From positions 66,643 to 115,768 of the forward strand of contig PHGD01000002.1 of NCBI GenBank assembly GCA_011090425.1: a DNA stretch of 49,126 nt. The letters run 5' to 3'. Shown piece by piece: positions 1 to 32,247 of the stretch. This DNA is from Nitrospira sp. LK70. GTDB taxonomy: Bacteria; Nitrospirota; Nitrospiria; Nitrospirales; Nitrospiraceae. The notes beneath the pieces were generated by a model. It was not told the origin of the DNA and searched no databases. It was given only the letters and a program-made list of their open reading frames with translations. The first letter of the stretch is position 1, and the number at the start of each line of letters is the position of its first letter. The translations under genes were made by a program, and so were the position numbers.

Positions 1-727
1 GAAGCTCATCCTCCGTCACCGTCGCCGACGGTTCAGCCCGATAGACGGTGACGAGCGCCCGCATCGGGACCGGCTGGGTTTTCACTTCGCCCTTGCGGTC
101 CCACACCGACTCCAGCCAAGTGACTTCCCAGGTGTCCGGTGTTTGGGGCAGGACCGTGGAAATGTCCACCGTGACCGTTTCCTTCTCCGCTCGCGTGAAC
201 GGATTCGAGTCCTCGGTGCCGTTCATCCACTGGTTCATCTTGCCGGTCGCCGGATCCTGTTCGCTCAACATCGCATAGACGTGATACACCGCTTTGCGCT
301 GGAGTGCGGCATCGACCGTCACCAGCCGCGCATTGGCGATAAATTCGCCAATGGTGGCGGCTAGCACGCGCGGATCGGCCGAGCTCGTCATCTCGACCGG
401 TCCAACGGCCGTCGCATGGCCGTGCGGATCGACAGTGTAGAGAAAGGGGATGAATTTGGATTGGCTCCCGACATAGGCGATCCCGCCCACCGAGGCTAGA
501 GCAATGAGCAAACAGAGGATCGCGATCATTTCCCAGGATCGCCGGGTCGCGACTTGCGCCTTCATCAGATCGTTCCAGGTCTGTCGAGCGGAGAGATAGG
601 GATTTGCGTTCTCTCCGACCCGTCGCCCATCTTCGATGATGGTGGGTTGTGACTGCCGTTCGTCCTTCGAGGCCCGTTCCCCTCCCAAGATGTACTTCAT
701 TGCCTTCCATGATTCGACCAGACTCAT
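1..727 (-). CDS. trbF: TrbF/VirB8-family conjugal transfer protein, 3' end cut by window edge
   Basis: The frame stays open from an ATG at 727 to the window edge, about 242 residues. It has a short cytoplasmic N-terminus, one transmembrane helix near residues 60-80 (IAILCLLIALASVGGIAY) and a periplasmic part that reads like the VirB8 fold, including IGEFIANARLVTVD and a W-rich stretch (TWEVTWLESVWD). VirB8/TrbF proteins are bitopic inner-membrane scaffolds of the type IV secretion channel. Its ATG overlaps the trbE TGA (ATGA at 724-727), so translation is probably coupled. Gene order after trbE matches P-type trb operons. The C-terminus lies outside the window, so completeness cannot be judged. 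An unrelated frame also runs through this region and looks like a shadow, because only this frame gives the helix and the family pattern. Confidence 0.85.
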   Translation of the reverse strand, partial: MSLVESWKAMKYILGGERASKDERQSQPTIIEDGRRVGENANPYLSARQTWNDLMKAQVATRRSWEMIAILCLLIALASVGGIAYVGSQSKFIPFLYTVDPHGHATAVGPVEMTSSADPRVLAATIGEFIANARLVTVDAALQRKAVYHVYAMLSEQDPATGKMNQWMNGTEDSNPFTRAEKETVTVDISTVLPQTPDTWEVTWLESVWDRKGEVKTQPVPMRALVTVYRAEPSATVTEDEL

Positions 728-3330
728 GCCGTCACCTCGTCATAGGCTCCGTAATCACGCAGCCCGAGTCCCCGGCTCGCCAGCCATTCGTCGATCCACG
801 CCGCGCCATACTTGGCTTCCAGCCCGCGAATCTCCGCGATGGACTCCTTATCCGATGCGCCGACGAAGGCGAGGGCCAAGGGTCCTAATGCGAGGTCGTA
901 AAGCCGATGGCCATCTTCGGAACTGTAGTAATACTGGCGCTTCGGAATGGCCGTAGCGAGAATCTCAATTTGCCGCGAGTTCAGTCCCATTCGACGATAC
1001 AGGGCCGACGTGTCTTCATCACGGGCAAAGACGTTGGGCAAAAAGATCTTGGTCGCCGTGGACTCCACGATCACATCCAAAATGCCGGAGTTCGCCGCAT
1101 CGGTGAGACTCTGTGTCGCCAGTAGCACGAGGCAGTTGGCCTTGCGCAGGACTTTCAGCCATTCCCGAATCTTGTCTCGAATCACCGGATGTCCAAGCAT
1201 CAACCAGGCTTCATCCACGATGATGGCGCTGGGCTGCCCCCGCAAGCTCCGTTCGATCCGGCGAAAGAGATAGAGAAGGGTCGGGAGGGCGTACTTGTCC
1301 CCGAGCCCCATCAACTCCTCGATTTCAAACACGGTGAAATCCGCGAGCGCGAGGCCGTCCCGTTCGGCGTCGAGCAGATGGCCCAAGGCCCCGCTCACGG
1401 TGTATTGCTTCAAGGCTTCGCGGATTGTTTCGTCCTGCACCATATTCACGAAATCCGAGAGCGAGGCCGGCGGGATGTTCTGTTCGTGTACGCGATCATG
1501 ACTCAACGCATTGGCGTGCAGCGCCATGACCGTTTCCGCGATGGCGTTCCGTTGGATCGGCGTGGTGTTTACCCCGTTCAGGGCCAGCATGGTCTCGATC
1601 CACTCCAACGCCCAGGCCCGATCTCCTCTGGTCTCCAAAAATTGGAGCGGGCAAAAGGCGAGCTCGTTGGCATCGCCCGCCACGGTGACGTGCAATCCGC
1701 TGTGCCCTTTCGTGTGGGCTCGAATCGCCGCCGCCAGGGGATACATGGAGAGGCCCTTATCGAAGACAAAGATCGACATGCCCTCGTACCGGCGTAGTTG
1801 CGCGGCGAGCATCCCTAAATGGGTCGATTTCCCTGAGCCGGTCGGTCCCAGCATCAACGTATGACCCACATCGCGCACATGGAGATTCAGACGAAACGGA
1901 GTGGCCCCATGCGTCACGCACTGCATCAAGGGAGGGGCGTCAGGCGGATACAGGGGACAGGGCGCGGTGGCGCTGCCGGTCCAGATCGTACTGGTCGGGA
2001 GGAGATCCGCCAGGTTCATGGTGTTCAACGGCGGACGCCGGACATTTTCGACGCCATGTCCCGGCAAGCTGCCCAAGAAGGCGTCCATCGTATTGAGCGT
2101 TTCGATCCGTGCGGCAAATCCCAACTGATGGATCAGTTTTTCGATGTGACGCGCCGACCGTTCCACTTCCGATCGGTCCTCATCCATAAGGACCACAACA
2201 CTCGTGTAGTAGCCCATTCCGATCAATCCACTGTTCACTTCCCCCATGGCGGCCTCCGCATCGGCCACCATCGCCATCGCATCCTGATCCAATGGACCCG
2301 TCTGCGAGTTGGTGATTTGATCGAGAAATCCTCGGACTTTCTGCTTCCATTTCCGCCGATAGCGCGTTAATTCGCGCACGGCTTCGTGTTGATCCATGAA
2401 GATAAAGCGGGACGACCAGCGGTACTCGATGGGTAACTCCCCGAGCGCGGTCAGGATCCCTGGGGTGCTGTCCAGGGGAAAGCCTTCGATCGCCACCACC
2501 TGCATGTACTGCTGGCCGATTTTCGGAATGACGCCCGTCCACAATTCTTGTCCGCCGATCATGGCATCGAGATACATCGGATGACTGGGCAAGAGGACCG
2601 GCTGATTGATGCCGGTCACACAGCGTTGCACCCACCGCAGGAATTCATCATGGGTCACGGTCGACCCATCCTCCAGGATGAGGGAGTGTCCGCGGAGGCG
2701 TTGCAGGCGAAAGACCGACGACAACCGCGATTCAAACGATGCGCAGTCCCTGGTGAACTGCTCCACCAGTCCCTTCGTGCGGTCCTGGGCGGTGATTGCC
2801 GCCTGGTCATCGTCGAACATCAATTCGACGAACTTGCGTTGCGCGACCAGCGGCGGCAGATACGTGAGGGTCACGACAAAATAGCCGTCGTACATGGCCC
2901 CCAGCCCTTCAAAGAGCCGCCGCCGTTCTTCGTCCAACGCAGCCGTCAGCGCATCGGGAAAATGGGAGCGTCCAGGCGCGGCATAGCCGGTTGCCCGACG
3001 CCGCACCGCGTCCACATGCACCATCCAACCGTTGCCGAGCTGACTCAAGGCTTGATTGATCCGGAACGACACGGCTTCGCGCTGGGGTTCCGTACTGCTG
3101 GCCTGATCGTCGCCGCGGTAGATCCAGGCCGCCATGAGTGAGCCGTTTTTCCCGACGATCACACCGTCCTCGACCATCGCCGCATAGATCAAGAGATCCG
3201 ACAGGCCCGCGTCCTGGGAGCGATGCTTCTTCAGCGTTACGTGTGCGTCGGCTTCCCGGACACGTTGGATCAGCAACAAAAGGAATGCGAGTCCCAACAC
3301 CGCAATTAGGAGGGTCAGCGTCACCATCAT
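724..3330 (-). CDS. trbE: TrbE/VirB4-family conjugal transfer ATPase
   Basis: An 868-residue protein of the usual VirB4/TrbE length. The N-terminus has a hydrophobic segment (LTLLIAVLGLAFLLLLIQRV). The C-terminal half is a RecA-like ATPase with Walker A GPTGSGKST near residue 495 and Walker B AIIVDEAWLML near residue 700. VirB4 ATPases energise pilus assembly and substrate transfer at the inner membrane. I chose the ATG at 3330 (MMVTLTLL) because it overlaps the trbD TGA as ATGA, like its neighbours. The frame stays open 51 codons further upstream, but that part lies inside trbD. It ends in an ATGA overlap with trbF. No damage is visible. Confidence 0.93.
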   Translation of the reverse strand: MMVTLTLLIAVLGLAFLLLLIQRVREADAHVTLKKHRSQDAGLSDLLIYAAMVEDGVIVGKNGSLMAAWIYRGDDQASSTEPQREAVSFRINQALSQLGNGWMVHVDAVRRRATGYAAPGRSHFPDALTAALDEERRRLFEGLGAMYDGYFVVTLTYLPPLVAQRKFVELMFDDDQAAITAQDRTKGLVEQFTRDCASFESRLSSVFRLQRLRGHSLILEDGSTVTHDEFLRWVQRCVTGINQPVLLPSHPMYLDAMIGGQELWTGVIPKIGQQYMQVVAIEGFPLDSTPGILTALGELPIEYRWSSRFIFMDQHEAVRELTRYRRKWKQKVRGFLDQITNSQTGPLDQDAMAMVADAEAAMGEVNSGLIGMGYYTSVVVLMDEDRSEVERSARHIEKLIHQLGFAARIETLNTMDAFLGSLPGHGVENVRRPPLNTMNLADLLPTSTIWTGSATAPCPLYPPDAPPLMQCVTHGATPFRLNLHVRDVGHTLMLGPTGSGKSTHLGMLAAQLRRYEGMSIFVFDKGLSMYPLAAAIRAHTKGHSGLHVTVAGDANELAFCPLQFLETRGDRAWALEWIETMLALNGVNTTPIQRNAIAETVMALHANALSHDRVHEQNIPPASLSDFVNMVQDETIREALKQYTVSGALGHLLDAERDGLALADFTVFEIEELMGLGDKYALPTLLYLFRRIERSLRGQPSAIIVDEAWLMLGHPVIRDKIREWLKVLRKANCLVLLATQSLTDAANSGILDVIVESTATKIFLPNVFARDEDTSALYRRMGLNSRQIEILATAIPKRQYYYSSEDGHRLYDLALGPLALAFVGASDKESIAEIRGLEAKYGAAWIDEWLASRGLGLRDYGAYDEVTA

Positions 3331-3644
3331 GTGTACTGATTCCCCTGCCTCGTGGTATTCACTCGCCATGGGGTACTGCGCGCGGGATAGTAGGGTTTGT
3401 AGACCAACTGCCGCAGATAGACCTGCCGAAGCTTGGGATCGGCTTTGGCCATGAGTCGCAGCAGATACAGAAGAAGAAACCACAAACTCACGCCGACGAT
3501 TCCGGCGCGCAGCTCTTGGGCGGTGAAGACCAGCGCAAACGCGATCGCACCACAGAACAGCACCAGTTCGCGGTCCCCGCCCCAGAACAGATTGTCTCGG
3601 TGCATGACACGACGAATCGGGATCTTACGGAGCGCCATGGTCAT
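3327..3644 (-). CDS. trbD: TrbD/VirB3-family conjugal transfer protein
   Basis: A 105-residue membrane protein. The charged N-terminus ([22 protein letters not shown]) is followed by two close hydrophobic segments, about residues 28-42 and 48-62, and a basic C-terminal tail. This matches TrbD/VirB3, a small inner-membrane T4SS subunit that works with VirB4; in some systems the two are fused. The ATG at 3644 overlaps the trbC TGA as ATGA (3641-3644), and the TGA overlaps the trbE ATG. The start could also be the third codon (ATG, MALRK). Position between trbC and trbE supports the call as much as sequence does. Confidence 0.88.
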
Positions 3645-4042
3645 CTCCGCCTCACCGGTTCAGGATGAAACGAGGCCATCAATTCTTTTCCCTCCCCGCT
3701 CCACGCGATTTCTGCCCCAGCGGCAAAGAGCGTCGTCAGCACGTTTTGGGCGCCCACGAGGATGGCGATCAACAACACGAGAAAGACCATCATGCGCAAA
3801 AACCCGGTCAACTCGCCGCCGAAGATCAACGCCCCGGCCGCGCCCACAATCCCGATCAAGGACAGGGTAAAGGCGACGGGCCCGGTGATTGAGGCACGCA
3901 ACCGGGTCAAGGCAGATTCGTAGGGGAGCCCGCCCCCGGCCGTCCCCGCCGCGTAGGCGTCAGGCGGCAGGGTGATGACGCACAGCGTCAGCAGGAGGCC
4001 GACGCACCACAAATGTTGTTTCCCGTACGATGCAGTGCTCAT
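3641..4042 (-). CDS. trbC: TrbC/VirB2-family conjugal pilin precursor
   Basis: A 133-residue protein with a long signal sequence ([21 protein letters not shown], ending in AYA/AA) and two hydrophobic segments separated by GGELTGF. That is the layout of VirB2/TrbC pilins, which are cleaved, in some systems cyclised, and polymerised into the conjugative pilus. The start ATG shares one base with the trbB stop (TAATG at 4040-4044), so expression is likely coupled to trbB. The hydrophilic tail after the second helix is a little long for a mature pilin and could be trimmed. Function is inferred from layout and operon position. Confidence 0.85.
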
Positions 4043-5034
4043 TAATGGTGCTCCTTCGGTTCAATCAGTGACCTGGTGATGTACTGGCCCTTCTTATAGC
4101 CCTGGACTTCGAGAATATCGTCGACGCGGCGCCCCTCCGCACAGCGTGTGATGTGCACCAGGACCTGTACGGCTTCGGCAATCAGCGGTTCGATGGGTTT
4201 GGGATAGTCCTGATTCATGCTGATATACAGCGCCAACTTCGAGAGCCCGGCCCTGGCATGATTCGCATGCAAGGTGGCAATGCCGCCTTCATGTCCGCTG
4301 TTCCAGGCCATGAGCAGATCCAACGCTTCCGGCCCTCGGACTTCTCCCACCAAAATGGTGTCGGGCCGCATGCGCATGGAGATCTTCAAGAGCGTCGCCA
4401 TCGTGACATCCACGGTGGTGTGATATTGCACGCAGTTGTCGGCACGGCATTGAATTTCGGCGGTGTCCTCGAAGATGAACACGCGCAGATGGGGAAAGGT
4501 GTCCATCATGGTATCGATCAGGGCATTGACGAGCGTGGTCTTGCCCGAACCGGTCCCGCCGACCACGAGGATGTTTCGTCGCGTGGCAATGGCAGTGAGG
4601 AGCACGTCTCGTTGCCGAGCCGTCATGATCCCCTGCTCCACATACTGCTCGAGCCGAAAGACCGCGAGCGCGCGTTTGCGAATCGCAAACGTCGGAGCGG
4701 GCACGATCGGCGGGATCTGGGCGGCAAAGCGGGAGCCGTCGAGGGGAAATTCCCCGTCGAGGTAGGGAGACTGGCGCGTGATTTCCTTGCGATGGAACCC
4801 CGCTACGGTTTTGATGATGGCTTCCGCGCGGGCGGCGGGGAACGTCCCGATACAGGCCATCCCCTGCCCGAGCCGTTCACACCAGAGCCGCCCATCCGCG
4901 TTCAACATGACTTCGACGGTCCGCGGGTCATTGAGGGTTCCAAGTAGCGGTGCGCCCATATCCCGTTCAATCATCCGGCGGGCGCGTTCTCTCGTCGAGG
5001 GTCCGTCATCCATGCGAGTGCTTGCGTTCACCAT
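4042..5034 (-). CDS. trbB: TrbB/VirB11-family P-type conjugative transfer ATPase
   Basis: A hexameric traffic-ATPase type protein of 330 residues from the ATG at 5034. Visible motifs are Walker [10 protein letters not shown] near residue 160, an Asp-box-like IFEDTAEIQ, the Walker-B-region motif [14 protein letters not shown] and the His box [11 protein letters not shown]. VirB11/TrbB proteins sit at the cytoplasmic base of the T4SS and switch it between pilus assembly and DNA transfer. The frame stays open to a TTG at 5058, but that codon lies inside an inverted repeat, so I prefer the ATG at 5034; another ATG follows at 5013. No strong Shine-Dalgarno is visible before any of them. It is the first gene of the trb operon, which has no relaxase or coupling gene within this window. 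Confidence 0.92.
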
Positions 5035-5053
5035 TGACGATGTATGCGTGTAA

Positions 5054-5082
5054 ATCAAGTGTATGTAGTTCTACTACTTGAT
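5054..5082. promoter_or_regulatory. Dyad-symmetric site upstream of trbB (possible operator)
   Basis: ATCAAGT (5054-5060) is mirrored by ACTTGAT (5076-5082), and inside it GTAG (5065-5068) is mirrored by CTAC (5071-5074) around a TT centre. The arms are nested, as in an operator for a dimeric repressor or a short hairpin at the 5' end of the trb message. No regulator gene is recognisable next to it. The sequence after it is AT-rich, which would suit a promoter. Confidence 0.45.
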
Positions 5083-6992: not shown

Positions 6993-9209
6993 TCACACGG
7001 CAATGATAGTTTTCATAAGCTGAACCTGATAGGGCCGCCCGGTTGACATCAGATAGAAGATCGTCAGTAGATTGTGGTCGTTGTCCCATTGCGTGTATTT
7101 GTGAAGGAGATAGGCCCCATAGGAAAAGGCAGGGTGTCCGATGTGCGGCATGTTTCGATCTGAATCTGGGTCTTGTGGCCCAAACATGAACCGGCCCCAC
7201 GCTGCGTCGCGCTGTGGATCGAAAACTGCTATCTCCGGAGCCGTATCCAATTCCCAGGGCGTGTCCGCTATGCGCGCTACAATGGGCAGGTGATGCGAGG
7301 CCATCACCTCTCGCGGACCGGAAAGCTGATAAAGCAGGATCCATTTGCCAGTGCCGGGAATGCGGCCCGCCGACAGGGATGTCCAATAGTAGCACGTCGA
7401 AAAGAGCGATCTTCCCGCGCTCTCATCCGGCACCCAAGATAGATTGCCATCATAGTAACGGATCCCTTCTTTGCTTGGACCCTCGCCGGGGATAAGCGGC
7501 ATGAAGGCCAGATTGACGCCAGACGGCCCCCGGGGATCGATACACCCGGGGCGCAATTCTGTGCCAGGAGACATCGCGCCATGACCAAAGAGCAGAACCC
7601 CCTCTTCGGTCTGTGCATTCAGGCCGGGAATTTCCTCCGATCTTATGACAACTGGAGCAACTTGAAGGAACCGCGCAGTCCCTCCAACACGCGAAAGCAC
7701 GAACTCGAAAGTGAAAGGCTTGGGCCCGTCTGGCCAATCCGAGCTCGTTAGACTGCTGAGCCCGTCAGAATAGACGAAGACATAGACTTTTCCACCATGA
7801 CTGAACACCCCAGTCGGCGTTCCGTCTCCCAGAGGTTGCCACAGTAGATTGGAGTCCGTTTCACTACCTCGTACTGTGAAGGGGCGAAAATAAGGCCCAT
7901 CAGTCACGAACCGCACAGCGGTCATCATAGGATTGATGCACACCGGCCCTTGCCATTGCCCCAGCCCCTTGACCCAGTTGACATTCAGTTCGCCCGTCCG
8001 GCCACCTGAAATTACCGTCATTTGATCACCGAGCTGCTGAATGACGGCAACAGCACCGTCGTCGAAGCTGCTGCCAGGCGGTGCAATTTGGAACGGCCCC
8101 TGCCAAGGATTACTGTCAATAGCCCAGTAGACATCGATGCCACCGTCCTGGTTCACAAGGAACGTGTCCCATTGGTTCGAGCTCTGCCGTGCCACAGTGA
8201 TCGGCGTTCCCGGTTTTGTAGGGTACAGACCTGGAACCGCTGGAGCAGGCCCCTGCCAAACACCGCCACCGACTACCCAGATTGAACTTAGCCGCCCCTC
8301 ATTGCTTACGAACTGAACAGTGAGTAGGTCGGGATCCTGATTAAAAGCGGCCAGATTCGCGCCTGGCACCGTAATGTTCGGAGGACTAACTCCCACAGGT
8401 CCTTGCCATATTCCGCCGGCGATTGACCAAGCAACATAGAAAACGCCATCATCTCCGATGAAAAACACATCGAGCTGATCGGCCCCTTGCTTGCATGCGG
8501 CAATGCCAGCACCTGATTCGGGGTAAGGAATATGGGCCTCCCCTACGATCTGTGGTCCCTGCCACACACCACCTCCAACCACCCATGCAACGTGAAGGCG
8601 ACGGTTTTGACCGATAAAGAAGACGTCGAGCTGATTGTCATTTTGCTTGATAGAAACTAATTTACCGCCGGGCTTGGCAATGTGGGATGCGCTGATTTGC
8701 TGGGGCCCCTGCCAGATGCCACCTTCCTCCACCCATGCCACATGAAGCCCGCCATTGTTTCCGATAAAGAACACATCAAGTTGCTCATCGGATTGGTGAG
8801 CGACGGCAATGCACGCACCCGGCGGCGCCAGATTAGGCGGGCTAATTTGAAACGGCTGGAACCAGTTGCCCCCGTCTACCACCCAGGCAACGAATAATGC
8901 CCCGTTTTCGCCAATGAAAAATGCATCCGACTGGTTCGGGAGCTGCTTCCCGGCGCCGATGCAAGCATGCGGCGGAACGCGAATGTCATCGATGACACCA
9001 ATGGCATCAGCATTGTGAGCTGGCCCTCCTTCACGTCCCAGCTTCGGCACATCCCCAAAAAAGATGTAAGTTTTATCAAAATGTACAGTGCTCGCGCCGA
9101 GATCGACGCCCTCAATCCCCCACTGACTCGTATCCTGATAGTGAAAGAGCCAATCGGGGTCAGACCTCCCGCTTACTTGGCCAATTCGTATTGTCGCAAT
9201 GTGCTGCAT
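6993..9209 (-). CDS. DUF4185-type protein with an inserted seven-repeat lectin-like propeller
   Basis: About 738 residues. The N-terminus (WGIEGVDLGASTVHFDKTYI then FFGDVP) looks like the first strand pair of a DUF4185 propeller. DUF4185-like sequence resumes only after about residue 430 (GVFSHGGKVYVFVYSDGLSS, then SLSAGRIPGTGKWILLYQLS and GAYLLHKYTQWD). Between them lie seven repeats of about 50 residues with the pattern LDVFFIG-NG-LHVAWV-GG-WQGP, like sugar-binding bacterial lectin propellers of the PLL type. So a whole propeller appears inserted into a loop of another. DUF4185 has no firmly known reaction; related folds include glycosidases. No signal peptide is seen with the ATG at 9209 or the TTG at 9224. 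Export is inferred only from neighbours. Confidence 0.75.
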   Translation of the reverse strand: MQHIATIRIGQVSGRSDPDWLFHYQDTSQWGIEGVDLGASTVHFDKTYIFFGDVPKLGREGGPAHNADAIGVIDDIRVPPHACIGAGKQLPNQSDAFFIGENGALFVAWVVDGGNWFQPFQISPPNLAPPGACIAVAHQSDEQLDVFFIGNNGGLHVAWVEEGGIWQGPQQISASHIAKPGGKLVSIKQNDNQLDVFFIGQNRRLHVAWVVGGGVWQGPQIVGEAHIPYPESGAGIAACKQGADQLDVFFIGDDGVFYVAWSIAGGIWQGPVGVSPPNITVPGANLAAFNQDPDLLTVQFVSNEGRLSSIWVVGGGVWQGPAPAVPGLYPTKPGTPITVARQSSNQWDTFLVNQDGGIDVYWAIDSNPWQGPFQIAPPGSSFDDGAVAVIQQLGDQMTVISGGRTGELNVNWVKGLGQWQGPVCINPMMTAVRFVTDGPYFRPFTVRGSETDSNLLWQPLGDGTPTGVFSHGGKVYVFVYSDGLSSLTSSDWPDGPKPFTFEFVLSRVGGTARFLQVAPVVIRSEEIPGLNAQTEEGVLLFGHGAMSPGTELRPGCIDPRGPSGVNLAFMPLIPGEGPSKEGIRYYDGNLSWVPDESAGRSLFSTCYYWTSLSAGRIPGTGKWILLYQLSGPREVMASHHLPIVARIADTPWELDTAPEIAVFDPQRDAAWGRFMFGPQDPDSDRNMPHIGHPAFSYGAYLLHKYTQWDNDHNLLTIFYLMSTGRPYQVQLMKTIIAV

Positions 9210-9224
9210 ATGATTCGCTTTCAA

Positions 9225-9546
9225 AGGAGCCTAGGCTGCGAAATCGTATCTCGGCCCTGCTCAAGGAGAAGCTGACTGTCGTGGGAAAGCCGGAGCTGAT
9301 CTTAATTTATGCATCGCTAATACCGGATGCGTTCTCCAAAGCTGCCGCACTCACACACCAGTGAACGGACTGTCGAAGCTCTAAGTCATGACATTCTCAC
9401 CCGCCAAAGGCTGACCATAGCACTAGGCCAAAATTCTTCATGATCCCTCTTTAAATAAACACGTATGGTCCTAAATATATGGCCCATTCGCGACCAGGGA
9501 CCATTGCCATCTATTTCAGTACCTTCTCGTTTTTAGTTTACTCATT
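9225..9546. other. Intergenic AT-richer stretch, no gene seen
   Basis: About 320 bases between two minus-strand genes. It probably carries the promoter of the DUF4185/propeller gene, but I cannot point to a clear -35/-10 pair. Confidence 0.4.
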
Positions 9547-9906
9547 CTATCTGTCGGGTTGACCTGGGATGCGCGGTAACTGTTCCCGTTCAATCGGCTT
9601 CATCCGTGACGAAGTTACATCCCTCACTGTTCCATGGTGCCGGTGCATTTCGAGGACTACAGGGGCATTGTCCTTCGATGCGCTAATTTCGAGCGTGGAA
9701 GGATCTTTCTTTTTGACCTGCACGTTGGTGTAGCCCTGCATCTCAAGCCGTTGCTTCGCCACCTCCTCGGAAATCAACCCGACGGTATCCCGCACCTGTC
9801 CATCAGGATGAGGGTGGAGGGCCGAATCCTCCGCAGCAGCGATTCCTATGTTGACAAAGAGATACATGATGAACACCGCAGCTACATGCATCATAAAGAG
9901 CCTCAT
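9547..9906 (-). CDS. Exported PepSY-like small protein
   Basis: A 119-residue protein starting at ATG 9906. It has a signal peptide (HVAAVFIMYLFVNIGIAAA, cleavage expected after AAA or AAAE). The mature part contains VGLISEEVAKQRLEMQGYTN and VQVKKKDPSTLEISASKDN, which match the layout of PepSY-like domains: a helix with a GY turn, then a strand pair. PepSY domains are small periplasmic or secreted modules, some acting as protease inhibitors. It follows the metalloprotease-like gene by 39 bases on the same strand, so an inhibitor or chaperone role towards it is an attractive but unproven guess. Confidence 0.6.
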   Translation of the reverse strand: MRLFMMHVAAVFIMYLFVNIGIAAAEDSALHPHPDGQVRDTVGLISEEVAKQRLEMQGYTNVQVKKKDPSTLEISASKDNAPVVLEMHRHHGTVRDVTSSRMKPIEREQLPRIPGQPDR

Positions 9907-9945
9907 TAGATGAGATGGCTATAGGTTGAGCGATTTCACATGCCG

Positions 9946-10953
9946 TTATGGCATGACTACCCGATTGGACGCTTCTCGGTTATCAGCCCACGCTTGAGTA
10001 CGAGTCGGTGGCGCCACACAGACATGATCTCCTCGGAACGCCTCACGCCAGACAAACCCTTGTAGACAAGTGTCAGGACCAAAAGGGCCACCTGCCGGAT
10101 TGCGACGAGCCGCCGCTTGCGTGTTATCCTGTCGGGTCTGCTCACGAATATCACCCGTGACGCACATGTAGTCGCGTGAGTCTGCTTCTCGCCACACGTA
10201 TCCCTGTCTACAGGTATTCGGACCATAGGCAATGCGCGCGGGATTATTCCGAGACGCGGCGGTCGCATTCTCCTCACCTGTTCGTGTTCTGACATCTCCC
10301 GTCACACACACATGATCACCAGGGAACGCTTCGCGCCAGACAAATCCCTGTCTGCAGGTGTCGGGACCAAAGGGGCCGCCTCCTGGATTTCGCCGCGCGG
10401 CCGCTTGCGCATTATCCTGCCGAGTTGCCTCGCGAATCTGTCCTGAAACACACACGTGATCCTGGGGACTCGCTTCGCGCCAGACATATCCCTGCGGACA
10501 CCGGTCGACCATCTCGCTCGAAACAGTGACAATGGCCTGCCCATTCGCGGACTCAATCCGATCGATGCGAATGGACACGCCGTTGGCTTGCAAGGCGGTG
10601 ATAGGATTCCTCGCCCCCGTCCGTTCGCGAAGGAGAAAACTCGTGTATGAGCCATCGCCGAGTCGACGAGATTCATGAATGAGCACGATGTCACCAGCAA
10701 ACCCATTGTCCCATCCCTGCTTCCGTCGAAACTCGACGGTGTAATACCTGAAGAGATCTCCAGGATCGAAGGGGATGCGAATTAACTGTGTGCCATTCGA
10801 AACCGCAGGATCAAGAGCTTTAAGTGTGATGGATCTCGAGCTAATGCCATCCGCGCCGAACATCATGATGCTCTCACGGGCCAGCCATCCCATTCGATCC
10901 ACATTAAACCCGTTGAAACCTGGACCGCCAAAGCCGAATTCCGCTTGTCCCAT
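9946..10953 (-). CDS. C-terminal part of a secreted metalloprotease-like protein with four Cys/WREA repeats
   Basis: A 335-residue frame. The first 150 residues (FGFGGPGFNGFNVDRMGWLA, then YYTVEFRRKQGWDNGFAGDI and VLIHE) resemble the region after the zinc site in secreted proteins whose catalytic part carries HExxH; that catalytic half is absent. Then come four repeats of about 45 residues with the pattern C-QG(Y/F)VWREA-DHVCV and DN-AA-RNP-GPFGPDTC. The paired cysteines suggest disulfides outside the cytoplasm. The ATG at 10953 has no ribosome binding site, and an in-frame TAA lies three codons upstream, so the gene is probably 5'-truncated. Its 5' end overlaps a frame encoding an unrelated N-terminus (10904-11188), a sign of a rearrangement joint. 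Confidence 0.55.
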   Translation of the reverse strand: MGQAEFGFGGPGFNGFNVDRMGWLARESIMMFGADGISSRSITLKALDPAVSNGTQLIRIPFDPGDLFRYYTVEFRRKQGWDNGFAGDIVLIHESRRLGDGSYTSFLLRERTGARNPITALQANGVSIRIDRIESANGQAIVTVSSEMVDRCPQGYVWREASPQDHVCVSGQIREATRQDNAQAAARRNPGGGPFGPDTCRQGFVWREAFPGDHVCVTGDVRTRTGEENATAASRNNPARIAYGPNTCRQGYVWREADSRDYMCVTGDIREQTRQDNTQAAARRNPAGGPFGPDTCLQGFVWREAFRGDHVCVAPPTRTQAWADNREASNRVVMP

Positions 10954-11188
10954 TCGTGGTTATGTTGTACTTGCCGCCTCCAATACCCACAACATCAATG
11001 GAACGAGAGATATGGATATCATCAGAAAAATAGCCTAACCCAGTCGGAACCTGGATAACGGTTGAGCTGTTGTTGTTATCGATGCTAGCGAGCATTGCTT
11101 GAAAACCTGGTAAATCATCGTCAACACCGTTCCACGGACAACCGTAATCGCGAGGATCTATCGCAGAAATACGATCCGACGTAGCCAT
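10904..11188 (-). pseudogene. N-terminal stub of a pectate-lyase-like (beta-helix) protein
   Basis: The frame starts at ATG 11188 behind a strong GGAGGAG ribosome binding site. It reads IDPRDYGCPWNGVDDDLPGF, a typical entry into Pectate_lyase_3 beta-helices (the YG-x-G-DD signature), then VIQVPTGLGYFSDDIHISRS and VVGIGGG, the first helix turns. It stops after 94 residues, whereas such proteins run to 300-700. The next downstream sequence in another frame is the metalloprotease-like C-terminus, so the beta-helix was cut off by deletion or recombination near 10940-10970. It has no signal peptide. Confidence 0.5.
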
Positions 11189-11202
11189 GATCTCCTCCCC
11201 CA

Positions 11203-11480
11203 TCAAGACCTAGAGAGCATCACAAAGACGGACTGGCAGCGATTAGAAGCGCGGCAACCGGCTAGCCCAACTTTCCATGCTTTTTTATACCCCGAAAGGG
11301 AGTGGGGCAAAGCGTGAGTCCGCTCTTGACTGAACGGATGTGACTCTCGTGCTTTCGTTGGCTCGTTCAAGAGTCGAGGTCCACTCGGGACAGGTTGTTG
11401 ACAGGCGGTTGCGGAGAGCACAGCAACCCCCACAACCAGAGCCGATAGTGCGAGTGGCCGTTTGTTCGTTTAGACATATT
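11203..11480 (-). pseudogene. Frameshifted lipoprotein relic
   Basis: One frame reads PLALSALVVGVAVLSATAC, a textbook lipoprotein signal with lipobox LSATAC, followed by QQPVPSGPR. An ATG (ATG TCT AAA CGA) at the expected place upstream is in another frame, so one base seems to be missing between them. Without repair only a GTG inside the signal (11433) is available. The mature part of about 65 residues has no family I know. A GTG-started short protein is possible but unlikely to be exported. Confidence 0.35.
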
Positions 11481-11641
11481 CAGTTGATCACTACGGTGCT
11501 GACGTGCAAGTGATTGGATGTGAATTCAGACTGATTCAGACATCCCTTTTACACGCCCCATCGAACCGCTGACGGATCTTAATGTAAGAGAAAAGCCAGA
11601 TCTGGCGAGCCTCCAATTCCCGTTTAAACGCTCGACTCCTG

Positions 11642-14104
11642 TCATGACCCGATTCGCACGACCTTTCCTATCGAGGGAACGCCGGAGGTGTTGACCAGGA
11701 AGAGTAAATAGTCACCCGGCGGTGCGATCGTGCCGTTCGCAGGAGCATGTACGTGAAGCGTACCCGGTGCAGCCCTATCGAAAGACAGGGGCACGAAAAG
11801 CTGGTTTTGGTTATAGGCATGTGTCGCAGCCCCAAGCCGAACAAGGCTTATCTTAGAGATGGTCATCGAATCTGGAGAGGTTACAGAAAACGACTGGCTA
11901 TACTTCAGGGCTGCAGGTGCATCGGTTACGGCCGGTCGAGGTCCGCGGAACAGATACGGCGGAGAATACAGATCCGCATTCGGATGATCCGGTACTCCCC
12001 CGCCGCCTCCGCCTTGTCCGCCGCCAGCCACCAGTACACGTCCATCCGGAAGCAACAGTGCATTGGAGTGGTAGGTCCTCGGAGTCGGAGAAGGATTGAC
12101 CTCAGTCCAGAGACCGGTATCTGGATTCCAGATTTCGGTCGAGAGGGTGGCTACGCTTTCCCATAGACTGCTGGGTTCGCCTCCTCCTTGGGTGCCGTTG
12201 GTCACTAACACCTGCCCGTCTGGAAGGATCGTAGCCGTGGCATGCTGTCTACGGACGTGCATGGAACCTGTGGGTTTCCAAACCGGCGCTGAACTGTTGA
12301 GGTCTATGGTTTCCGCTGAAGCCAGCGGTGGCTCCGTGGCATTCGCGGTTCCGCCACCGAGTACCAGAATTTTCCCGGGAGCATACATCACTGCCGAGCC
12401 ATACTCTCGAACTTGAGAACGTGGGGGGCCTTCTATCAGACTGGGAGTAGGTCCTAGCTTGATCCAATAAGAGCGAGGAGAAGCACTCGCCACAAACACT
12501 TGACCGTTTGGCGCATTGAACGCCCATGGGTAGTAGATAAACCAGCCATTGGTAATGCTGGATGTCTGCGGTATATCAAGCTCATTCCAGCCAAACTGTC
12601 CACTCGCCTGGTACGTGCGTGAGATGGTGGGGTCGGGATCATTGACGATGTAGACATCACCCGAGCCGCTTACCTGAGGGGCCAACGCAATCTCGTGAAC
12701 GCTAAGTTCGCTTTCGCCGACTGGGTGTTGAGCGAAATCAGGGTAAGTCCCATCAGCTTGTTCTTCAGTCCGCCATAAACGGTTTTGGCTCCCCTGGCGA
12801 AGACCGACCATATAGACGAACAGTCGGCCATTGGCTCCGCGCGCCACGGCGATTGCCGTGGCACGATTCGCAGCACTCCCTACAGGTCCGAAGGCAAAGT
12901 CTGGAAATGTTCCGTCGGACCGTTCGCGCGAATGCCACACGCGCCCGTCCATTCCAATCATGAAGAGTTCGATCGAATTATCAGATCGCAGCACTGCCGT
13001 GATTCGCTGCGCCAGATTGCTCTTGCTGGCGACAGGCTGATTTGCAAAATCGGGGAAATGGCCATCAGGTGCCTGATCGCTCCGCCACAAATGGTTATCC
13101 ATTCCCACCATGAACGCGATCTGCTGGCCGGAAGGCTTTCGAACGACGGCTAAATCGAGGGCGCGATTGGAGTCGCTCCCCACAGGCGCTTGAGCGAAAT
13201 CGGGCCAACTCCCATCAGGCCTCGCCACCGCATGCCACAGCCGGTGGTCCAGACCCACCATGTAAACGTCCAGGCCATTTTGAGGGAGACTCACGGCGGA
13301 TACGCGCAGGGCTCGGTTAGCAGCACTTCCCACTGGTTGGTTGGCGAAATCCGGAAACGTTCCGTTGGGCTGTTCCTGGCTTCGCCACAGGCGTCCATCC
13401 AGGCCCAACATCACAAGATCCGAGGCACCGCCGGATGCTCGTACGGCCACGATTTGCTGTGCTTTATTGCTGGGGCTTGCAATGGGCCGGAATCCAGTCC
13501 AGCCACCGCGCTCCCAAATCTCCACCGATCGATTCGGAGTTCCATCCGCATGGGTGTTGTCGTAGGATCCGCCAATCGCGAGCATTGAACCGTTGGGCAG
13601 TGGCATGAGAGTCGCGTACCATCTCTCCACGTTCATATCTGCAACTTGAGACCATGTTTGTGTCTTTGGATCGAAAACATTGACGTCAACCGTTCCCTGA
13701 TCGGCGCCGGTGGCCGCTTTATCGTGGCCGCCAATGACCATGACACGGCCATCCGGAAGTAATGCGTGTCCAGCACAAAAAAGGTTTGTGAAATGGTTCG
13801 GAACCGTTACGAAGCGTCCCGAAGAACCCACAGACGCGTTAGGATCCCAGACATGGGCATGAGGCGTTCCCGCCCAGGTAGGGCCCGTCGGAATGTCTTG
13901 TCCGGTTGAGTTATAACGGGGCCACATCAGGACCTTTCCGGTGGGCAAGAGAGCCAAATGGACGGCCACCATTTTGTGACTACTCGTCCAGTCAGGAATG
14001 GCTTGCCACATACCGCCACTATCGGCGTTACTGTCCAGACCGTAGACCGAGTGGAGCAATATGCTCAATAGTATAACGACAAGTTTCTTTTTTGCTCTCA
14101 CCAT
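11642..14104 (-). CDS. Galactose/glyoxal-oxidase-like copper enzyme with an inserted five-repeat propeller
   Basis: 820 residues; ATG at 14104 behind AGGAGGG. It has a signal peptide (LVVILLSILLHSVYG). A Kelch-type propeller of the glyoxal/galactose oxidase family is followed by a C-terminal E-set domain (DUF1929-like). The radical-copper residues appear conserved: Cys110 (FCAGHALLPDG) and Tyr163 (RWYATLMPLPNG), the expected Cys-Tyr pair, plus Tyr678-His679 (RTYHSNALLLPDG) and His762 (THAYN). Known relatives oxidise alcohols or aldehydes to give H2O2. Residues about 214-463 are five repeats of about 50 residues (NRAL...VYMVGLDHRLWH...DGSWPDFAQAPVGS), a likely five-bladed tachylectin-2-like lectin propeller inserted between Kelch blades. 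The reading frame is intact. The substrate is unknown. Confidence 0.82.
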   Translation of the reverse strand: MVRAKKKLVVILLSILLHSVYGLDSNADSGGMWQAIPDWTSSHKMVAVHLALLPTGKVLMWPRYNSTGQDIPTGPTWAGTPHAHVWDPNASVGSSGRFVTVPNHFTNLFCAGHALLPDGRVMVIGGHDKAATGADQGTVDVNVFDPKTQTWSQVADMNVERWYATLMPLPNGSMLAIGGSYDNTHADGTPNRSVEIWERGGWTGFRPIASPSNKAQQIVAVRASGGASDLVMLGLDGRLWRSQEQPNGTFPDFANQPVGSAANRALRVSAVSLPQNGLDVYMVGLDHRLWHAVARPDGSWPDFAQAPVGSDSNRALDLAVVRKPSGQQIAFMVGMDNHLWRSDQAPDGHFPDFANQPVASKSNLAQRITAVLRSDNSIELFMIGMDGRVWHSRERSDGTFPDFAFGPVGSAANRATAIAVARGANGRLFVYMVGLRQGSQNRLWRTEEQADGTYPDFAQHPVGESELSVHEIALAPQVSGSGDVYIVNDPDPTISRTYQASGQFGWNELDIPQTSSITNGWFIYYPWAFNAPNGQVFVASASPRSYWIKLGPTPSLIEGPPRSQVREYGSAVMYAPGKILVLGGGTANATEPPLASAETIDLNSSAPVWKPTGSMHVRRQHATATILPDGQVLVTNGTQGGGEPSSLWESVATLSTEIWNPDTGLWTEVNPSPTPRTYHSNALLLPDGRVLVAGGGQGGGGGGVPDHPNADLYSPPYLFRGPRPAVTDAPAALKYSQSFSVTSPDSMTISKISLVRLGAATHAYNQNQLFVPLSFDRAAPGTLHVHAPANGTIAPPGDYLLFLVNTSGVPSIGKVVRIGS

Positions 14105-14601: not shown

Positions 14602-15615
14602 TGTTTAGTCCCACGATGTAGTGGAGTACAGTATCACCACTTACAACGAGAGGGACTATGGGACAACTACTTCACAGCTGCGCCCGGACGACAGCGTCGG
14701 TGCGTCACGCGATACAACAGAGTCAAGCGAGCCTGAGCCAGCTGGCCGCACGCTATGGGATCAACCCCAAGACGGTGGCCAAGTGGAAGAAGCGCACCCA
14801 TCTCACCGATGCTCCCATGGGACCGAAGGAGAAGCGGTCGACAGTCTTGACCACATCCGAAGAAGCCGTCTGCGTGGCATTCCGCCGAAAGACGCTGCTG
14901 TCGTTGGATGACTGTCTCTACAGTCTGCAACCGAGCCTTCCGCATCTGACACGGTCGGCCTTACATCGGTGCTATCAGCGTCATGGCATCAGCCGCTTGC
15001 CGAATACTCAAACAGATACCCGCACAAAGCCGTTCAGGAGGTACGCGATCGGATACTTTCACCTCGACATCGCCGAGGTGCGTACGGAAGAAGGCAAACT
15101 CTACCTGGTCGTCGCCATCGACCGCACCTCAAAGTTTGCTTATGCCGAGTTGCATGCACACGCTGATCGCATGGTGGCCATCGCCTTCCTTCAAGCCCTG
15201 ATCAACGCCGTTCCCTATAAGATCCACACGATCCTGACGGACAACGGCGGTCAGTTCTGTCATGCCCCCCGCTATCGCACTGGCCCGACCGCCCTGTTGT
15301 CCCCGCATCTCTTTGATCGCCTCTGCCGCAAACATGCGATTGAACATCGCCTCACCAAGCCCAACCATCCTTGGACCAACGGACAAGTCGAACGCATGAA
15401 TCGAACGCTGAAGGACGCCACGGTGAAACGCTATCACTATCAGTCCCACGACCAGTTGAAGCAACACCTCCACGCGTTTCTGATGGCGTATAATTTCGCG
15501 AAGCGCCTCAAGACCCTACGTGGTCTGACCCCGTACGAATATGTCTGCCAAATTTGGACGGGTGAGCCGCAGCGCTTTCATATCAATCCAACCCATCACA
15601 CCGTGGGACTAAACA
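14602..15615 (+). mobile_element. IS481-family insertion sequence with TCTAGA target duplication
   Basis: Ends are TGTTTAGTCCCAC at 14602 and the inverse GTGGGACTAAACA ending at 15615. TCTAGA lies directly outside both ends (14596-14601 and 15616-15621). That fits the NCTAGN target and 6-bp duplication known for IS481. The element carries one transposase gene and landed in the right end of an IS5 remnant. Confidence 0.9.
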
Positions 15616-15620
15616 TCTAG
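14658..15620 (+). CDS. IS481-family transposase
   Basis: 320 residues, ATG at 14658 after GAGGGACT. An N-terminal helix-turn-helix (SQLAARYGINPKTVAKWKKR) recognises the ends. The rve-type DDE core has Asp in YFHLDIAEV, Asp in ILTDNGGQF and Glu in NGQVERMNRTLKDA, so the catalytic triad is intact. It catalyses cut and strand transfer of its own IS. The frame runs through the right inverted repeat and uses a TAG that belongs to the duplicated TCTAGA target, so the stop codon is supplied by the insertion site. It appears functional. Confidence 0.92.
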   Translation: MGQLLHSCARTTASVRHAIQQSQASLSQLAARYGINPKTVAKWKKRTHLTDAPMGPKEKRSTVLTTSEEAVCVAFRRKTLLSLDDCLYSLQPSLPHLTRSALHRCYQRHGISRLPNTQTDTRTKPFRRYAIGYFHLDIAEVRTEEGKLYLVVAIDRTSKFAYAELHAHADRMVAIAFLQALINAVPYKIHTILTDNGGQFCHAPRYRTGPTALLSPHLFDRLCRKHAIEHRLTKPNHPWTNGQVERMNRTLKDATVKRYHYQSHDQLKQHLHAFLMAYNFAKRLKTLRGLTPYEYVCQIWTGEPQRFHINPTHHTVGLNI

Positions 15621-15736: not shown

Positions 15737-18700
15737 TCACTTTATCAGTGCTGGGTCATCACACATACGGTTGGGTTTGTGAACATCCATGAGATCCAAT
15801 ATACAAGCGCCGGGGTAGGCCGGATTAGTTATGGAGATGAATCCATCATGGCCGCTAGCTACAACAGGCCCACTGGCAAACGGCCATTGACCGGTATCTG
15901 CCTCCGGTTGAGACTGGGTACCCCTCATCTTCCAGCCTGATGAGCTATTGTCTACAATTGGATACTGAGTGTATGGCCTCCCAAACTTAAAGGTTACAGT
16001 ACCCGATCCACTGCCACGAGCATACTGAACATCCACTCTTCCCGGGGAAGGGCAGACAGGGCGATGCTCTATCGTATCTGTACAAACCTCATTGTCGAGG
16101 TGGATCTCTCCTGGTCCATTCGGATTGAGGCGCTTCACTGACTGCTTGAAGGAGTCAAAGTTCATAAAAGTTGGACTAAGGCGCAAGGGATCAACCACCT
16201 CGAAGAAACCAACTGGCCCCGGCCAATTTGGGAATGTCTTTTTCCACATTGCGATGTATAAATCCGATGTGAGACCGGATAGTTGGATGTACCACACGGT
16301 CCACTGATCCTCGTCCCCTCGTTCAAAATCGCTACGAGCACAAGGCCGATTCGATAGGTCTGGAAGGCAAAGAGCCTCAAGAAAACCCGACTTGCCGGGA
16401 ACTAACTCATTGAGGGGGGGAACAATCGGATTTTCACCACATGCAACACCGCGCCCGACACACAAGTGATTCGCCGTATGCTTATGGCCCTCGAACCCAT
16501 CAAAGCGAATCATCTGCGTGCGGTCGGCTCGGACTAGACTAGGATCATGAGGCATCAGGACGGTCGGAACCGAGTATCCATAGTCTGAGTCAACGTTTCC
16601 ACTGTTAATGTCTAGATTTGGAATCGGATTCCACCATGGTGTGTGAGTATGTAGTTGCAATCCAGACGCCAAAGGTATACCGCCAGCAGCGGTCATATAG
16701 CTGCTCGTATTGTCATAAATTTCGATACCGCCTGGCGAGTTATGGAAATCGTTGGGGCCTCCACTGAACATCTGAACGGTGGTCTGATGCTCCTTATTCA
16801 TGGCAAGATCGAGGATCATAGGCGGCACGCGGTAGCTGCCAATCGCTTGACGCACAACGCCATTACAGTCCCGCGGCGCACGACGATAATCTTGCCGAGG
16901 CTCCAATGAATTCTCCATTGTTCGGAAGGCGTCCAACTTGCCAGAGTACAATATGAAACGACACATTTGCTCATCCAAACCACCGTCGTCGAAAAAACCA
17001 TCTTTTTCGTGATCGGCTCGACGCCGAAAGGGAGCTTCGCGGCGAAGCAAGCTAGATGAAACGGCAAACTTCGCGGACGAAAAATCGAGCACCATCCGTG
17101 CTGCAGTCCGGATATCATCTTCGGCAGCGAACTCTGCAAGATTTTGAATGGCATCGAGGGATAACCGACTGTATGGTTTTGAGTTGTACTCCTGAAAGTC
17201 ATGTTTGAGGATGCTTTGGAGGCGAGTCATCCACCAATCGTGAAGGCCATTGGACTTGTTGTCATAATCCGACATTTCCGGCTGCGTCTTCCGTAAGAGC
17301 TGATTGACCAAGTAGCGCGTCGACTCCATCATGTGAATGTGATTTTCTGTTTCATCGATGCTGAGCTCAAGCGTATCGAAAAACGGTTCGAGTCCTAAGA
17401 GAAAGCCGAGCTCCACTCTCCAATTCGCTAAAAGCTGAATATCCTGCGGATCGATTCGGTATCTACTTAAGCACCAGCCACATCCACCCTTGAGCTCGCT
17501 CAGAGTCTCCATCACGTGCTGCCTCGCCTCGGCATCGAGCAGATCCCAATACAGAAAGGGGATCACGATCAGGTCTTTCAGCGCGATATCCAGATCACCC
17601 CAACGACGGTGCTCAAGATCTGTAAGCCTATTCCCAGGTGGCACATCCGATCCCAAAAGTTGGCCATTCTTCGCCACCGTTTTCAGTAGCGCGTTGACGT
17701 CCTTAACTCGTGTCTTCCACTCGTCGAGATTCTCACCGGCTTGCCCTTGACACGAACCCTTGTAGGCAAGTTTTGCAACAATGGCGGTTGAGAAATCCTC
17801 TCCCTTTATTATGCTGGGATCGTCCTGCCGTTGATTGAACTTCATTTTCGCTGGATCTGTGGTGCAGGCAAGATACGCTAAAAACCGTTGCGCCCGCACA
17901 TCGAAGCTCCTCAGTGCCCATGCTACAGTCGGCTCAAGAAATGCCCTTTTCCCACCTGCATCGATGGGAATCTTCGCCGAAGGAATGGGGATGGACGGAT
18001 CCTTCCATTCTCTATAGTCGATCCTAGGAAATAGCTCCTGCGGCGGAAATGATAAATCATATGGAAACACAATTGGATTGGACCACCCCTGGTCACATCG
18101 CGGCCGAGCGCTTAGAGTCCCATCCTTTATTTTGCAGCCCACGACTACAATGCGGAGGTTGCCTTTCTTGTTAGGAAGCGGGATAAACCAGTCGCCCTTA
18201 ATATCTGACCAGGAAACCGTTACTTCACACGATTTCTTGTAGTCATCATACTTATCCTGGCAATCGCGTTTATCCACCTCCCCCCATCGGACGTAGAATT
18301 CATCATAAGAAAACGGCAAAGTATTGCCCCATTGGAAGTACACATAGCCACCCTGCTGGTACGCGACCTGAGTGAAGCCATCTGAAAGATCCTCAGTTTT
18401 AGGAGACCAGGCGATCTGTCCCTGTTCGAATTCGGCAAGTCGCCCCTTGTAACCCGCAATATCCTGTTCATTGTTCACGGGGCAACCGAGGACGCCATCA
18501 CTTCCGCCGAGACTGCTCCATTTCTCAAGAATGAATCCGGTCACAACATGCGGAGCGCATATCCGACGATTGACGCGAATGGTATCCGTTCCTAGTCCGA
18601 AGAGAGACCCTGCAAAGCCCGGGGCATAGGTGATATGACCAACATGATCGAGATTCAACTCGAATGTGGCATGATCGGTGCCTGATCGGAACAGATAGGC

Positions 18701-27713: not shown

Positions 27714-28359
27714 CTAATTCCTGCAAGTGTGCGATGCGCGCCCGACTCACTTCAATCGTCCGGAGCCCGGTCTTGAGCATGAGATAGGCCATCGCCACAT
27801 TGCGACGTCCCTGAATGTCTGACTTGCGCGAATCCGTCTCCAGTGCGATGAGCAACCGTTTCGCATCCTCGACCGGTAGATGCCGCCGCGTGTGCGTGCG
27901 ACTGCAGCTCCAGCCTTTGACAAATTCAGCCGCATTCACGAGCCCCCGGTGATAGCGCCCCAGAAAGATCAGGAAGTGGCGGACAGCCGTCAGATAGCCA
28001 TTCTTCGTACGGGGATTTTGGAATCGCTGATCCAGATACGCGCGATAGGCCTCGACACAGGCACGATCCAAGTGGCGGAGGTCCGACGGTCTCCCCTGCT
28101 CGAGCCACGCGACAAAGGTTCGACTCCGTTTCCGATAGGTGGCGACCGTTCCCGTCGACGCGCTCCGCTGCGTGAGTTGCCGGGTGAATTCCTCGAGGTA
28201 GACGCGCAGACCAATGACCGTCGATGAGGAGAGCGCGAGACACACGGGAGGAAATTCGTCCCCTCTCCGTCTGAGCCCGGTCGTGGCCAAGGGAACGAGC
28301 GCGGTGGGCTGATTCGGAGATGGATCGTCGGGGTCAGGAATCGCAGGCACTAGATCCAT
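27714..28359 (-). pseudogene. Tyrosine recombinase/integrase, N-terminal half (split by IS1380)
   Basis: Starts at ATG 28359. A SAM-like core-binding domain lies at about residues 55-150 (GTVATYRKRSRTFVAWLEQG, NPRTKNGYLTAVRHFLIFLG), then the start of the catalytic domain with VAMAYLMLKTGLRTIEVSRA, where GLR carries the first catalytic Arg. The frame is cut by the IS after HLQEL. See 25699-26152 for the other half. Confidence 0.88.
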
Positions 28360-28676
28360 GGGGGCAATGGTTCTCCTAGAACATAACCGACACCGCTAAC
28401 TCAAGAGGGGTCGCGCACTGCCAGCCGAGGACAGACGCGTACAACATAGAATGGATGCCCTTTCGTTCCGCCCAGGAACACCCGAATGATCCACCGTTTT
28501 AGATGGGACGAGAGGCGGGGCTCACAGCTGTAGCCCGCCCGGCCCGTCTTGGCGCTCCCTCTCTCCACATATGTAATGGTGTGGTGACTCTTGACCCCAT
28601 AGTGGCCATCTCACGATAAGGTACTTTGCTTCGGCCCCACGTTCTTGTACCCCACCCCTCCATTTTTGAATTCTAC
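28360..28676. other. Intergenic, no gene seen
   Basis: Between the integrase start and the Tn3-family end. No frame with a family pattern was found on either strand. It may contain the integrase promoter and an attachment site, but I cannot identify one. Confidence 0.4.
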
Positions 28677-32170: not shown

Positions 32171-32247
32171 ACGGTCACCGTGAAAACTCTACAACTCCTG
32201 ACCACCGGTGGAATCCCGGCACCGAGTGAGCCTCTTGATGAGGAGGG

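What the first reader, a model, noticed from the sequence alone, without database searches (positions are those of the whole stretch)
6993..14104. Two different enzyme-type proteins each carry a lectin-like propeller inserted inside the host fold
In the DUF4185 protein (6993-9209) seven repeats interrupt the domain after its first strands. In the galactose/glyoxal-oxidase-like protein (11642-14104) five repeats of another type interrupt the Kelch propeller between the Cys-Tyr site and the Tyr-His site. The flanking host motifs stay in order and all copper ligands remain. Two independent 'propeller in propeller' insertions in one locus suggest a targeting strategy: a sugar-binding wheel that points an enzyme at a glycan surface. 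I know of lectin domains added at the ends of such enzymes, less so inserted in the middle.
Basis: partly seen in the sequence, partly recalled or inferred. Interest (0 to 1): 0.8.

Follow-up and report, generated by a model that had tools for sequence, protein, structure and literature searches.

The report
Sugar-binding wheels nested inside two enzymes
Two neighbouring genes of a Nitrospira bacterium encode enzyme-like proteins with a complete sugar-binding-type "wheel" set into an outer hairpin of the enzyme's own wheel, apparently a spare loop that can carry interchangeable attachment modules; the parts are known but this way of joining them is unusual.

Summary
Confirmed. On the minus strand, A (6993-9209, 738 aa) is a DUF4185-type domain split after residue ~75 by seven ~50-residue repeats of the BP39L/PLL lectin family. 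B (11642-14104, 820 aa) is a galactose-oxidase-like copper-radical oxidase split after residue ~202 by five full repeats plus a split sixth of PLL/CV39L type. Host flanks align end to end with uninterrupted relatives; all five copper-site residues of B are kept. By strand pattern both inserts sit in the outer c-d hairpin of one host blade, away from the active site (inferred). Relatives of A show this hairpin is a reusable docking site: Solirubrobacterales carry the lectin N-terminally on an uninterrupted host, while another Nitrospira and Spirosoma carry unrelated Cys-rich repeats in the same hairpin. B's insert was found in no other of 396 Nitrospirota genomes. Cautions: A keeps the two catalytic Asp of GH183 but lacks the essential Glu, scores below the Pfam cut-off and has no signal peptide, so its activity and export are open. 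Structure models were poor (pLDDT 52 and 40). Glycan targeting fits but is untested. New variant of a known kind: lectin-in-propeller precedents exist.

The parts
6993..9209 (-). Gene A: DUF4185-type host split by a BP39L/PLL-type seven-bladed lectin, 738 aa, no signal peptide
8985..9209 (-). A host N-flank (residues 1-75): strands a-b-c of blade 1
9102..9104 (-). A Asp36, equivalent of the EndoMA1 nucleophile Asp33
9051..9053 (-). A Asp53, equivalent of the EndoMA1 acid/base Asp51
7929..8984 (-). A insert (residues ~76-427): seven ~50-aa lectin blades in the host's blade-1 c-d hairpin
6993..7928 (-). A host C-flank (residues ~428-738): rest of the DUF4185-type domain
11642..14104 (-). Gene B: galactose-oxidase-like copper-radical oxidase split by a PLL/CV39L-type propeller, 820 aa, N-terminal signal peptide
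13499..14104 (-). B host N-flank (residues 1-202), with C110 and Y163
13775..13777 (-). B Cys110 (Cys228 of galactose oxidase)
13616..13618 (-). B Tyr163 (Tyr272 of galactose oxidase)
12596..13498 (-). B insert (residues ~203-503): five full ~50-aa blades plus a sixth split between its two ends
11642..12595 (-). B host C-flank (residues 504-820): remaining Kelch blades and GO-like early-set domain
12068..12073 (-). B Tyr678-His679 (Tyr495-His496 of galactose oxidase)
11819..11821 (-). B His762 (His581 of galactose oxidase)
9946..10953 (-). 335-aa protein with ~50-aa CxQGYVWREA repeats, duplicated together with A at contig C68

Best explanation
Each protein is a catalytic-type beta-propeller with an independently closed lectin-type beta-propeller set into one of its outer c-d hairpins. 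A closed propeller has both ends close together in one blade, so it can be spliced into a hairpin without breaking the host fold. By strand order the host active sites lie at the start of strand a and the end of strand b, the side opposite the c-d hairpins, so the lectin hangs off the back rim and leaves the active site open. The most likely role is avidity and targeting: many weak sugar sites on the lectin hold the oxidase (B, with a signal peptide) or the GH183-like domain (A) on a glycan-bearing surface such as a neighbouring cell envelope or biofilm matrix. Shown here: the architecture, the contiguity of the hosts, the conserved copper site of B, the two Asp of A, and the reuse of A's hairpin for other modules in relatives. 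Inferred: side of the wheel, blade count of B's insert, sugar binding, enzyme activity, targeting.
For: B: 9g8h aligns to both flanks with no gap in the target; uninterrupted relatives in G077 and G045 align across the junction. A: joined flanks align end to end with uninterrupted DUF4185, and the closest uninterrupted relatives (L055, L053) carry the same lectin family N-terminally, L055 with one continuous DUF4185 match at 455-811. G180 and Spirosoma L057 have a different repeat module at the same host position. The hosts form one clade, 100/100. Inserts match BP39L/PLL lectins by profile, sequence and fold; the A host C-flank matches EndoMA1 with Z 12.9, rmsd 3.3 over 202 residues. B keeps all five copper-site residues and has a signal peptide. 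A second genomic copy of A, 91% identical, has the same architecture.
Against: Structure models are poor (mean pLDDT 52.4 and 39.7), so nesting rests on sequence and homologues. A lacks the Glu and Arg of EndoMA1, falls below the Pfam cut-off and has no signal peptide, as do its insert-bearing relatives. No sugar-binding residue was tested, and B's repeats have Phe where A's repeats have a second Trp. Only B itself shows B's insert.
Confidence: 0.6

Rival explanations
1. The insert is a structural or oligomerisation module, or binds protein, and does not bind sugar; the hairpin simply tolerates bulky repeats.
For: Relatives of A put Cys-rich repeats with no lectin match into the same hairpin. 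Known PLL-family sites are weak (millimolar for monosaccharides) and one putative site was occupied by the protein's own N-terminal peptide (PMC6943638).
Against: Strong match of A's insert to a glycan-binding lectin family above the curated cut-off, and the same lectin family is fused to proteases, oxidases and glycosidase-like proteins.
Confidence: 0.2
2. A is catalytically inactive or has another substrate: a lectin carrier on a diverged GH183 scaffold, so only B is a targeted enzyme.
For: Glu243 and Arg198 of EndoMA1 are replaced in the whole clade (alignment); Glu243 mutants of EndoMA1 were nearly inactive (PMC10509167). A scores under the Pfam cut-off.
Against: Both catalytic Asp are kept in every intact member seen, and in DgGH4185b a Glu substitution broadly retained activity (PMC10115798). 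Conservation of the clade across three phyla argues against decay.
Confidence: 0.35
3. Assembly or gene-fusion artefact, or blades that merge with the host into one larger propeller.
For: Fragmented draft genome with 201 contigs and 3.6% contamination; B's insert is seen only once.
Against: A has a 91% identical second copy with the same architecture on another contig; frames are intact; the contig's VirB4 is 88-93% identical in several other Nitrospira genomes; uninterrupted hosts exist for both.
Confidence: 0.04

Closest known systems
BP39L / PLL / PHL / CV39L seven-bladed beta-propeller lectins
   Same: A's insert is a member of the domain family (NF052348, 245 bits over a cut-off of 200); B's insert is a distant relative.
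   Different: The solved members are stand-alone lectins; here the wheel is nested in another domain, and B's appears to have six blades.
GH183 / DUF4185 endo-D-arabinofuranases (EndoMA1, DgGH4185b)
   Same: Fold match of the C-flank and both catalytic Asp.
   Different: Below the Pfam cut-off, essential Glu and sugar-holding Arg replaced, no signal peptide, lectin in the blade-1 c-d hairpin. EndoMA1's extra domain is a putative beta-sandwich CBM beside the catalytic domain.
AA5 galactose oxidase / GlxA copper-radical oxidases
   Same: Kelch propeller plus early-set domain; C228, Y272, Y495, H496 and H581 equivalents all present.
   Different: Fusarium galactose oxidase carries its CBM32 N-terminally (PMC12355970). 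B has Tyr181 where galactose oxidase has Trp290 (Trp number recalled), and a lectin in the middle.
Vibrio cholerae sialidase and the Bap1 adhesin (lectin domain set into a propeller; the insertion is recalled from knowledge, not shown by the papers read here)
   Same: A lectin domain interrupting a propeller, with avidity as the proposed role.
   Different: The inserted lectins there are jelly-roll or beta-prism folds, not a second propeller.

Membership tests
BP39L/PLL beta-propeller lectin domain (A insert) | NCBIfam NF052348 domain model over its cut-off of 200 bits | tested here: met
   245.4 bits; 243.6 bits in the genome search
BP39L/PLL beta-propeller lectin domain (A insert) | Seven ~50-residue blades | tested here: met
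   Seven repeats at 82-433
BP39L/PLL beta-propeller lectin domain (A insert) | Binds glycans | not testable with these tools
   Needs a binding assay
PLL/CV39L lectin (B insert) | Over the cut-off of NF052348 or NF052350 | tested here: not met
   67.7 of 200 and 88.6 of 350 bits; homologous by sequence at E 2e-13, so a relative, not filed as a member
PLL/CV39L lectin (B insert) | Seven blades | tested here: inconclusive
   Five full repeats plus a split sixth; low-confidence model
GH183 (DUF4185), A host | Pfam PF13810 over the gathering score of 39.5 | tested here: not met
   26.6 whole, 25.9 joined flanks; Spirosoma relative L057 passes with 41.3
GH183 (DUF4185), A host | Two catalytic Asp (Asp33, Asp51 of EndoMA1) | tested here: met
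   D36 and D53
GH183 (DUF4185), A host | Essential Glu243 | tested here: not met
   Ser, Ala or His at the aligned position in the whole clade
GH183 (DUF4185), A host | Five-bladed propeller | tested here: inconclusive
   Z 12.9 to 8ic1 over 202 residues, but mean pLDDT 52
Galactose-oxidase-like copper-radical oxidase (B host) | GO-like_E_set domain and Kelch propeller | tested here: met
   PF09118 77.7 of 25 bits; Kelch_6 65 of 25.3 bits
Galactose-oxidase-like copper-radical oxidase (B host) | Cys-Tyr cofactor and Tyr/His/His copper ligands | tested here: met
   C110, Y163, Y678, H679, H762
GlxA | Equivalog model NF052501 over 800 bits | tested here: not met
   202.5 bits; so not called GlxA
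Galactose-oxidase-like copper-radical oxidase (B host) | Oxidase activity | not testable with these tools
   Needs an assay

The most novel reading that the evidence does not exclude
The c-d hairpin of catalytic beta-propellers is a general natural docking site: bacteria repeatedly splice whole, self-closing recognition modules (lectin wheels, Cys-rich repeats) into it on the face away from the active site, giving swappable targeting without touching catalysis, and B's wheel is a six-bladed member of a seven-bladed lectin family.
Probability: 0.3. Interest if true: 0.7.

Novelty: new variant of a known kind. Interest (0 to 1): 0.5.

Why it matters
It shows a natural, reusable place to plug a recognition module into a catalytic propeller, with three natural versions of one host (lectin inside, lectin in front, other repeats inside). 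That makes the effect of nesting against tandem fusion testable, and suggests a design rule for targeted oxidases and glycosidases. It also points to a glycan-directed protein set in a Nitrospira, whose surface interactions are little studied (own assessment).

Tried and rejected
Structure prediction: A with 8 rows gave pLDDT 52, B alone pLDDT 40; too poor to prove nesting, used only as fold hints. B's model gave no host match in the VIA list, though Foldseek listed galactose oxidases; the absence says nothing. Alignments with lectin and host fragments together were misaligned by MAFFT and dropped. Viral contigs gave no relatives. Searching other phyla from a named locus was not possible. A possible third case in the same genome (C68, 1428-aa DUF6259-type protein with a lectin at ~173-545) could not be tested, as no relative without the lectin was found. 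An 8-bp direct repeat TGGCTGGA at both ends of B's insert was not taken as evidence: about 0.2 such matches are expected by chance in the windows compared, and both copies encode Gly-Trp. No anomalous composition of the inserts (GC 0.56 and 0.585 against 0.52-0.56 in the flanks). Paper searches found no description of a propeller lectin inside AA5 or GH183, but only open-licence text was searched; BP39L and CV39L were not mentioned at all.

Full report
What is there. Both genes lie on the minus strand of a 115.8-kb contig. The genus is Nitrospira: a same-genus genome of the search (G180, contig C6 of 43,810 bases) corresponds to the named record "Nitrospira sp. isolate WA-bin32", 43,810 bases. 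The neighbouring VirB4-type gene is 88-93% identical in several other Nitrospira genomes, so the contig is unlikely to be a stray contaminant; the left end of the window looks like part of a conjugative element.

Gene A. The 738-residue product has three parts. Residues 1-75 and ~428-738 are host; ~76-427 are seven repeats of about 50 residues. The repeats match the domain model beta_propeller_lectin above its curated cut-off and Burkholderia BP39L in the PDB with E=2e-67. The host scores weakly against DUF4185: 26.6 bits, with flanks alone giving 13.9 and 15.7 and the joined flanks 25.9. The better test is alignment with uninterrupted proteins from Indioceanicola and Eleftheria plasmids, which runs end to end, with the insert falling between the third strand (NADAIGVIDD) and the fourth (AVRFVTDG) of the first blade.

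Relatives of A. One scan of bacterial genomes found five relatives. In Solirubrobacteraceae (L055) the same lectin family lies at the N-terminus (71-376) and DUF4185 is a single uninterrupted stretch (455-811). L053 and L054 share that order, with frameshifts. In Spirosoma fluviale (L057) and Nitrospira WA-bin32 the host is broken at the same hairpin, but by three Cys-rich repeats (WRFCGKC...LFW type) with no lectin match, and again at a second place further on. The hosts of six sequences (A, its copy A2, L055, L053, L057, G180) form a clade with 100/100 support, separate from the two ordinary DUF4185 proteins; within it the order of the three pairs is unresolved. So the hairpin has been filled by two unrelated modules, and the lectin has been joined to this host in two ways.

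Gene B. The 820-residue product begins with a clear signal peptide. Galactose oxidase 9g8h aligns to residues 42-204 and 505-818 over 158-300 and 297-616, that is without a gap in the target. Cys110, Tyr163, Tyr678, His679 and His762 correspond to Cys228, Tyr272, Tyr495, His496 and His581 of Fusarium galactose oxidase (Tyr272, Tyr495 and His581 as described in PMC12355970; the other two numbers recalled). The position of the stacking Trp290 (recalled) is Tyr181. The insert has five full repeats (215-464); the segment 469-500 supplies strands like a-b-c and ~203-214 a piece like d, so I read it as a six-bladed wheel closed by its own two ends. This is inference and the low-confidence model. The insert matches CV39L and PLL-type lectins below curated cut-offs. 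Host strands SVEIWE (c) and GWNEL (d) flank it, so this too is a c-d hairpin. Insert-free relatives occur in the same family; among 396 Nitrospirota genomes none other had the insert. The paralogue in the same genome (C80) carries an FG-GAP-type block of ~300 residues at its N-terminus instead.

How it probably works. In an antiparallel four-stranded blade, the starts of strands a and the ends of strands b lie on one face and the c-d turns on the other. In A the two Asp sit at the start of a and the end of b; in B the Cys, Tyr and Tyr-His sites all precede strand a. Both inserts would therefore hang from the rim of the opposite face. That is reasoning from strand order, not from a structure. 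The likely benefit is avidity: PLL-family lectins have several weak sites per wheel (PMC6943638), and pneumococcal sialidases that contain a lectin domain showed much higher activity on a multivalent substrate (PMC9929470).

Limits. A's clade lacks the equivalents of Glu243 and Arg198 of EndoMA1 (PMC10509167; alignments). EndoMA1 Glu243 mutants were nearly inactive, although a Glu substitution in DgGH4185b was tolerated (PMC10115798). A and its insert-bearing relatives have no visible signal peptide. I therefore call A GH183-like, not a GH183 endo-D-arabinanase. Models had pLDDT 52 and 40; their PDB matches (lectins for both inserts; EndoMA1 for A's C-flank, Z 12.9) agree with the sequence result but add little alone.

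Context. A and the 335-aa neighbour (9946-10953) are duplicated together on contig C68 at 87-89% DNA identity; there they lie beside a protein with a weak cellulase Ig-like domain match, an LGFP protein and a DUF6259-type protein that also carries a lectin wheel. B is not part of that pair. The genome holds six places matching the lectin family at E <= 1e-6, against none in 68 of 79 genomes of the genus.

Verdict.

Noticed in passing
L057 3935-6586 and L046 5987-7702 / L045 1-831: DUF4185 hosts of Spirosoma fluviale and Nitrospira WA-bin32 are broken twice by ~48-residue Cys-rich repeats (WRFCxKCxxLFWxG...GxCxxGxxHxxxGxNFVLPH) with no family match beyond a marginal zinc-ribbon hit.
   Followed up: partly
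L047 14129-18412 (G000 contig C68): A 1428-aa DUF6259-type protein in the same genome carries a lectin propeller at ~173-545 ahead of the DUF6259 match; possibly a third insertion, not testable for lack of relatives.
   Followed up: partly
window 9946-10953: 335-aa protein with four ~50-residue CxQGYVWREA...CV repeats, duplicated with gene A elsewhere in the genome; no informative Pfam or NCBIfam match.
   Followed up: partly
G000 contig C80 3470-5914 (L048): Second copper-radical oxidase of the genome (GlxA model 356 bits) has an N-terminal FG-GAP-like block of ~300 residues instead of an internal insert.
   Followed up: partly
L050 1-1647 (G000 contig C84): Thermolysin-like protease (judged by motif, not by a family search) with C-terminal lectin blades; other same-family genomes (G059, G077) have metalloprotease-like proteins with similar C-terminal blades.
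   Followed up: no
window 724-5058: VirB4- and VirB11-type genes of a conjugative element; VirB4 is 88-93% identical in several Nitrospira genomes.
   Followed up: partly
window 26226-33646: Cluster of transposase genes (DDE group 1, Tn3 family, Mutator family), and an rve integrase at 14658-15620 beside gene B.
   Followed up: no
window 15737-19684: 1315-aa protein with a signal peptide, near-identical ~90-residue tandem repeats at the N-terminus and LGFP repeats; the rest has no Pfam match.
   Followed up: no
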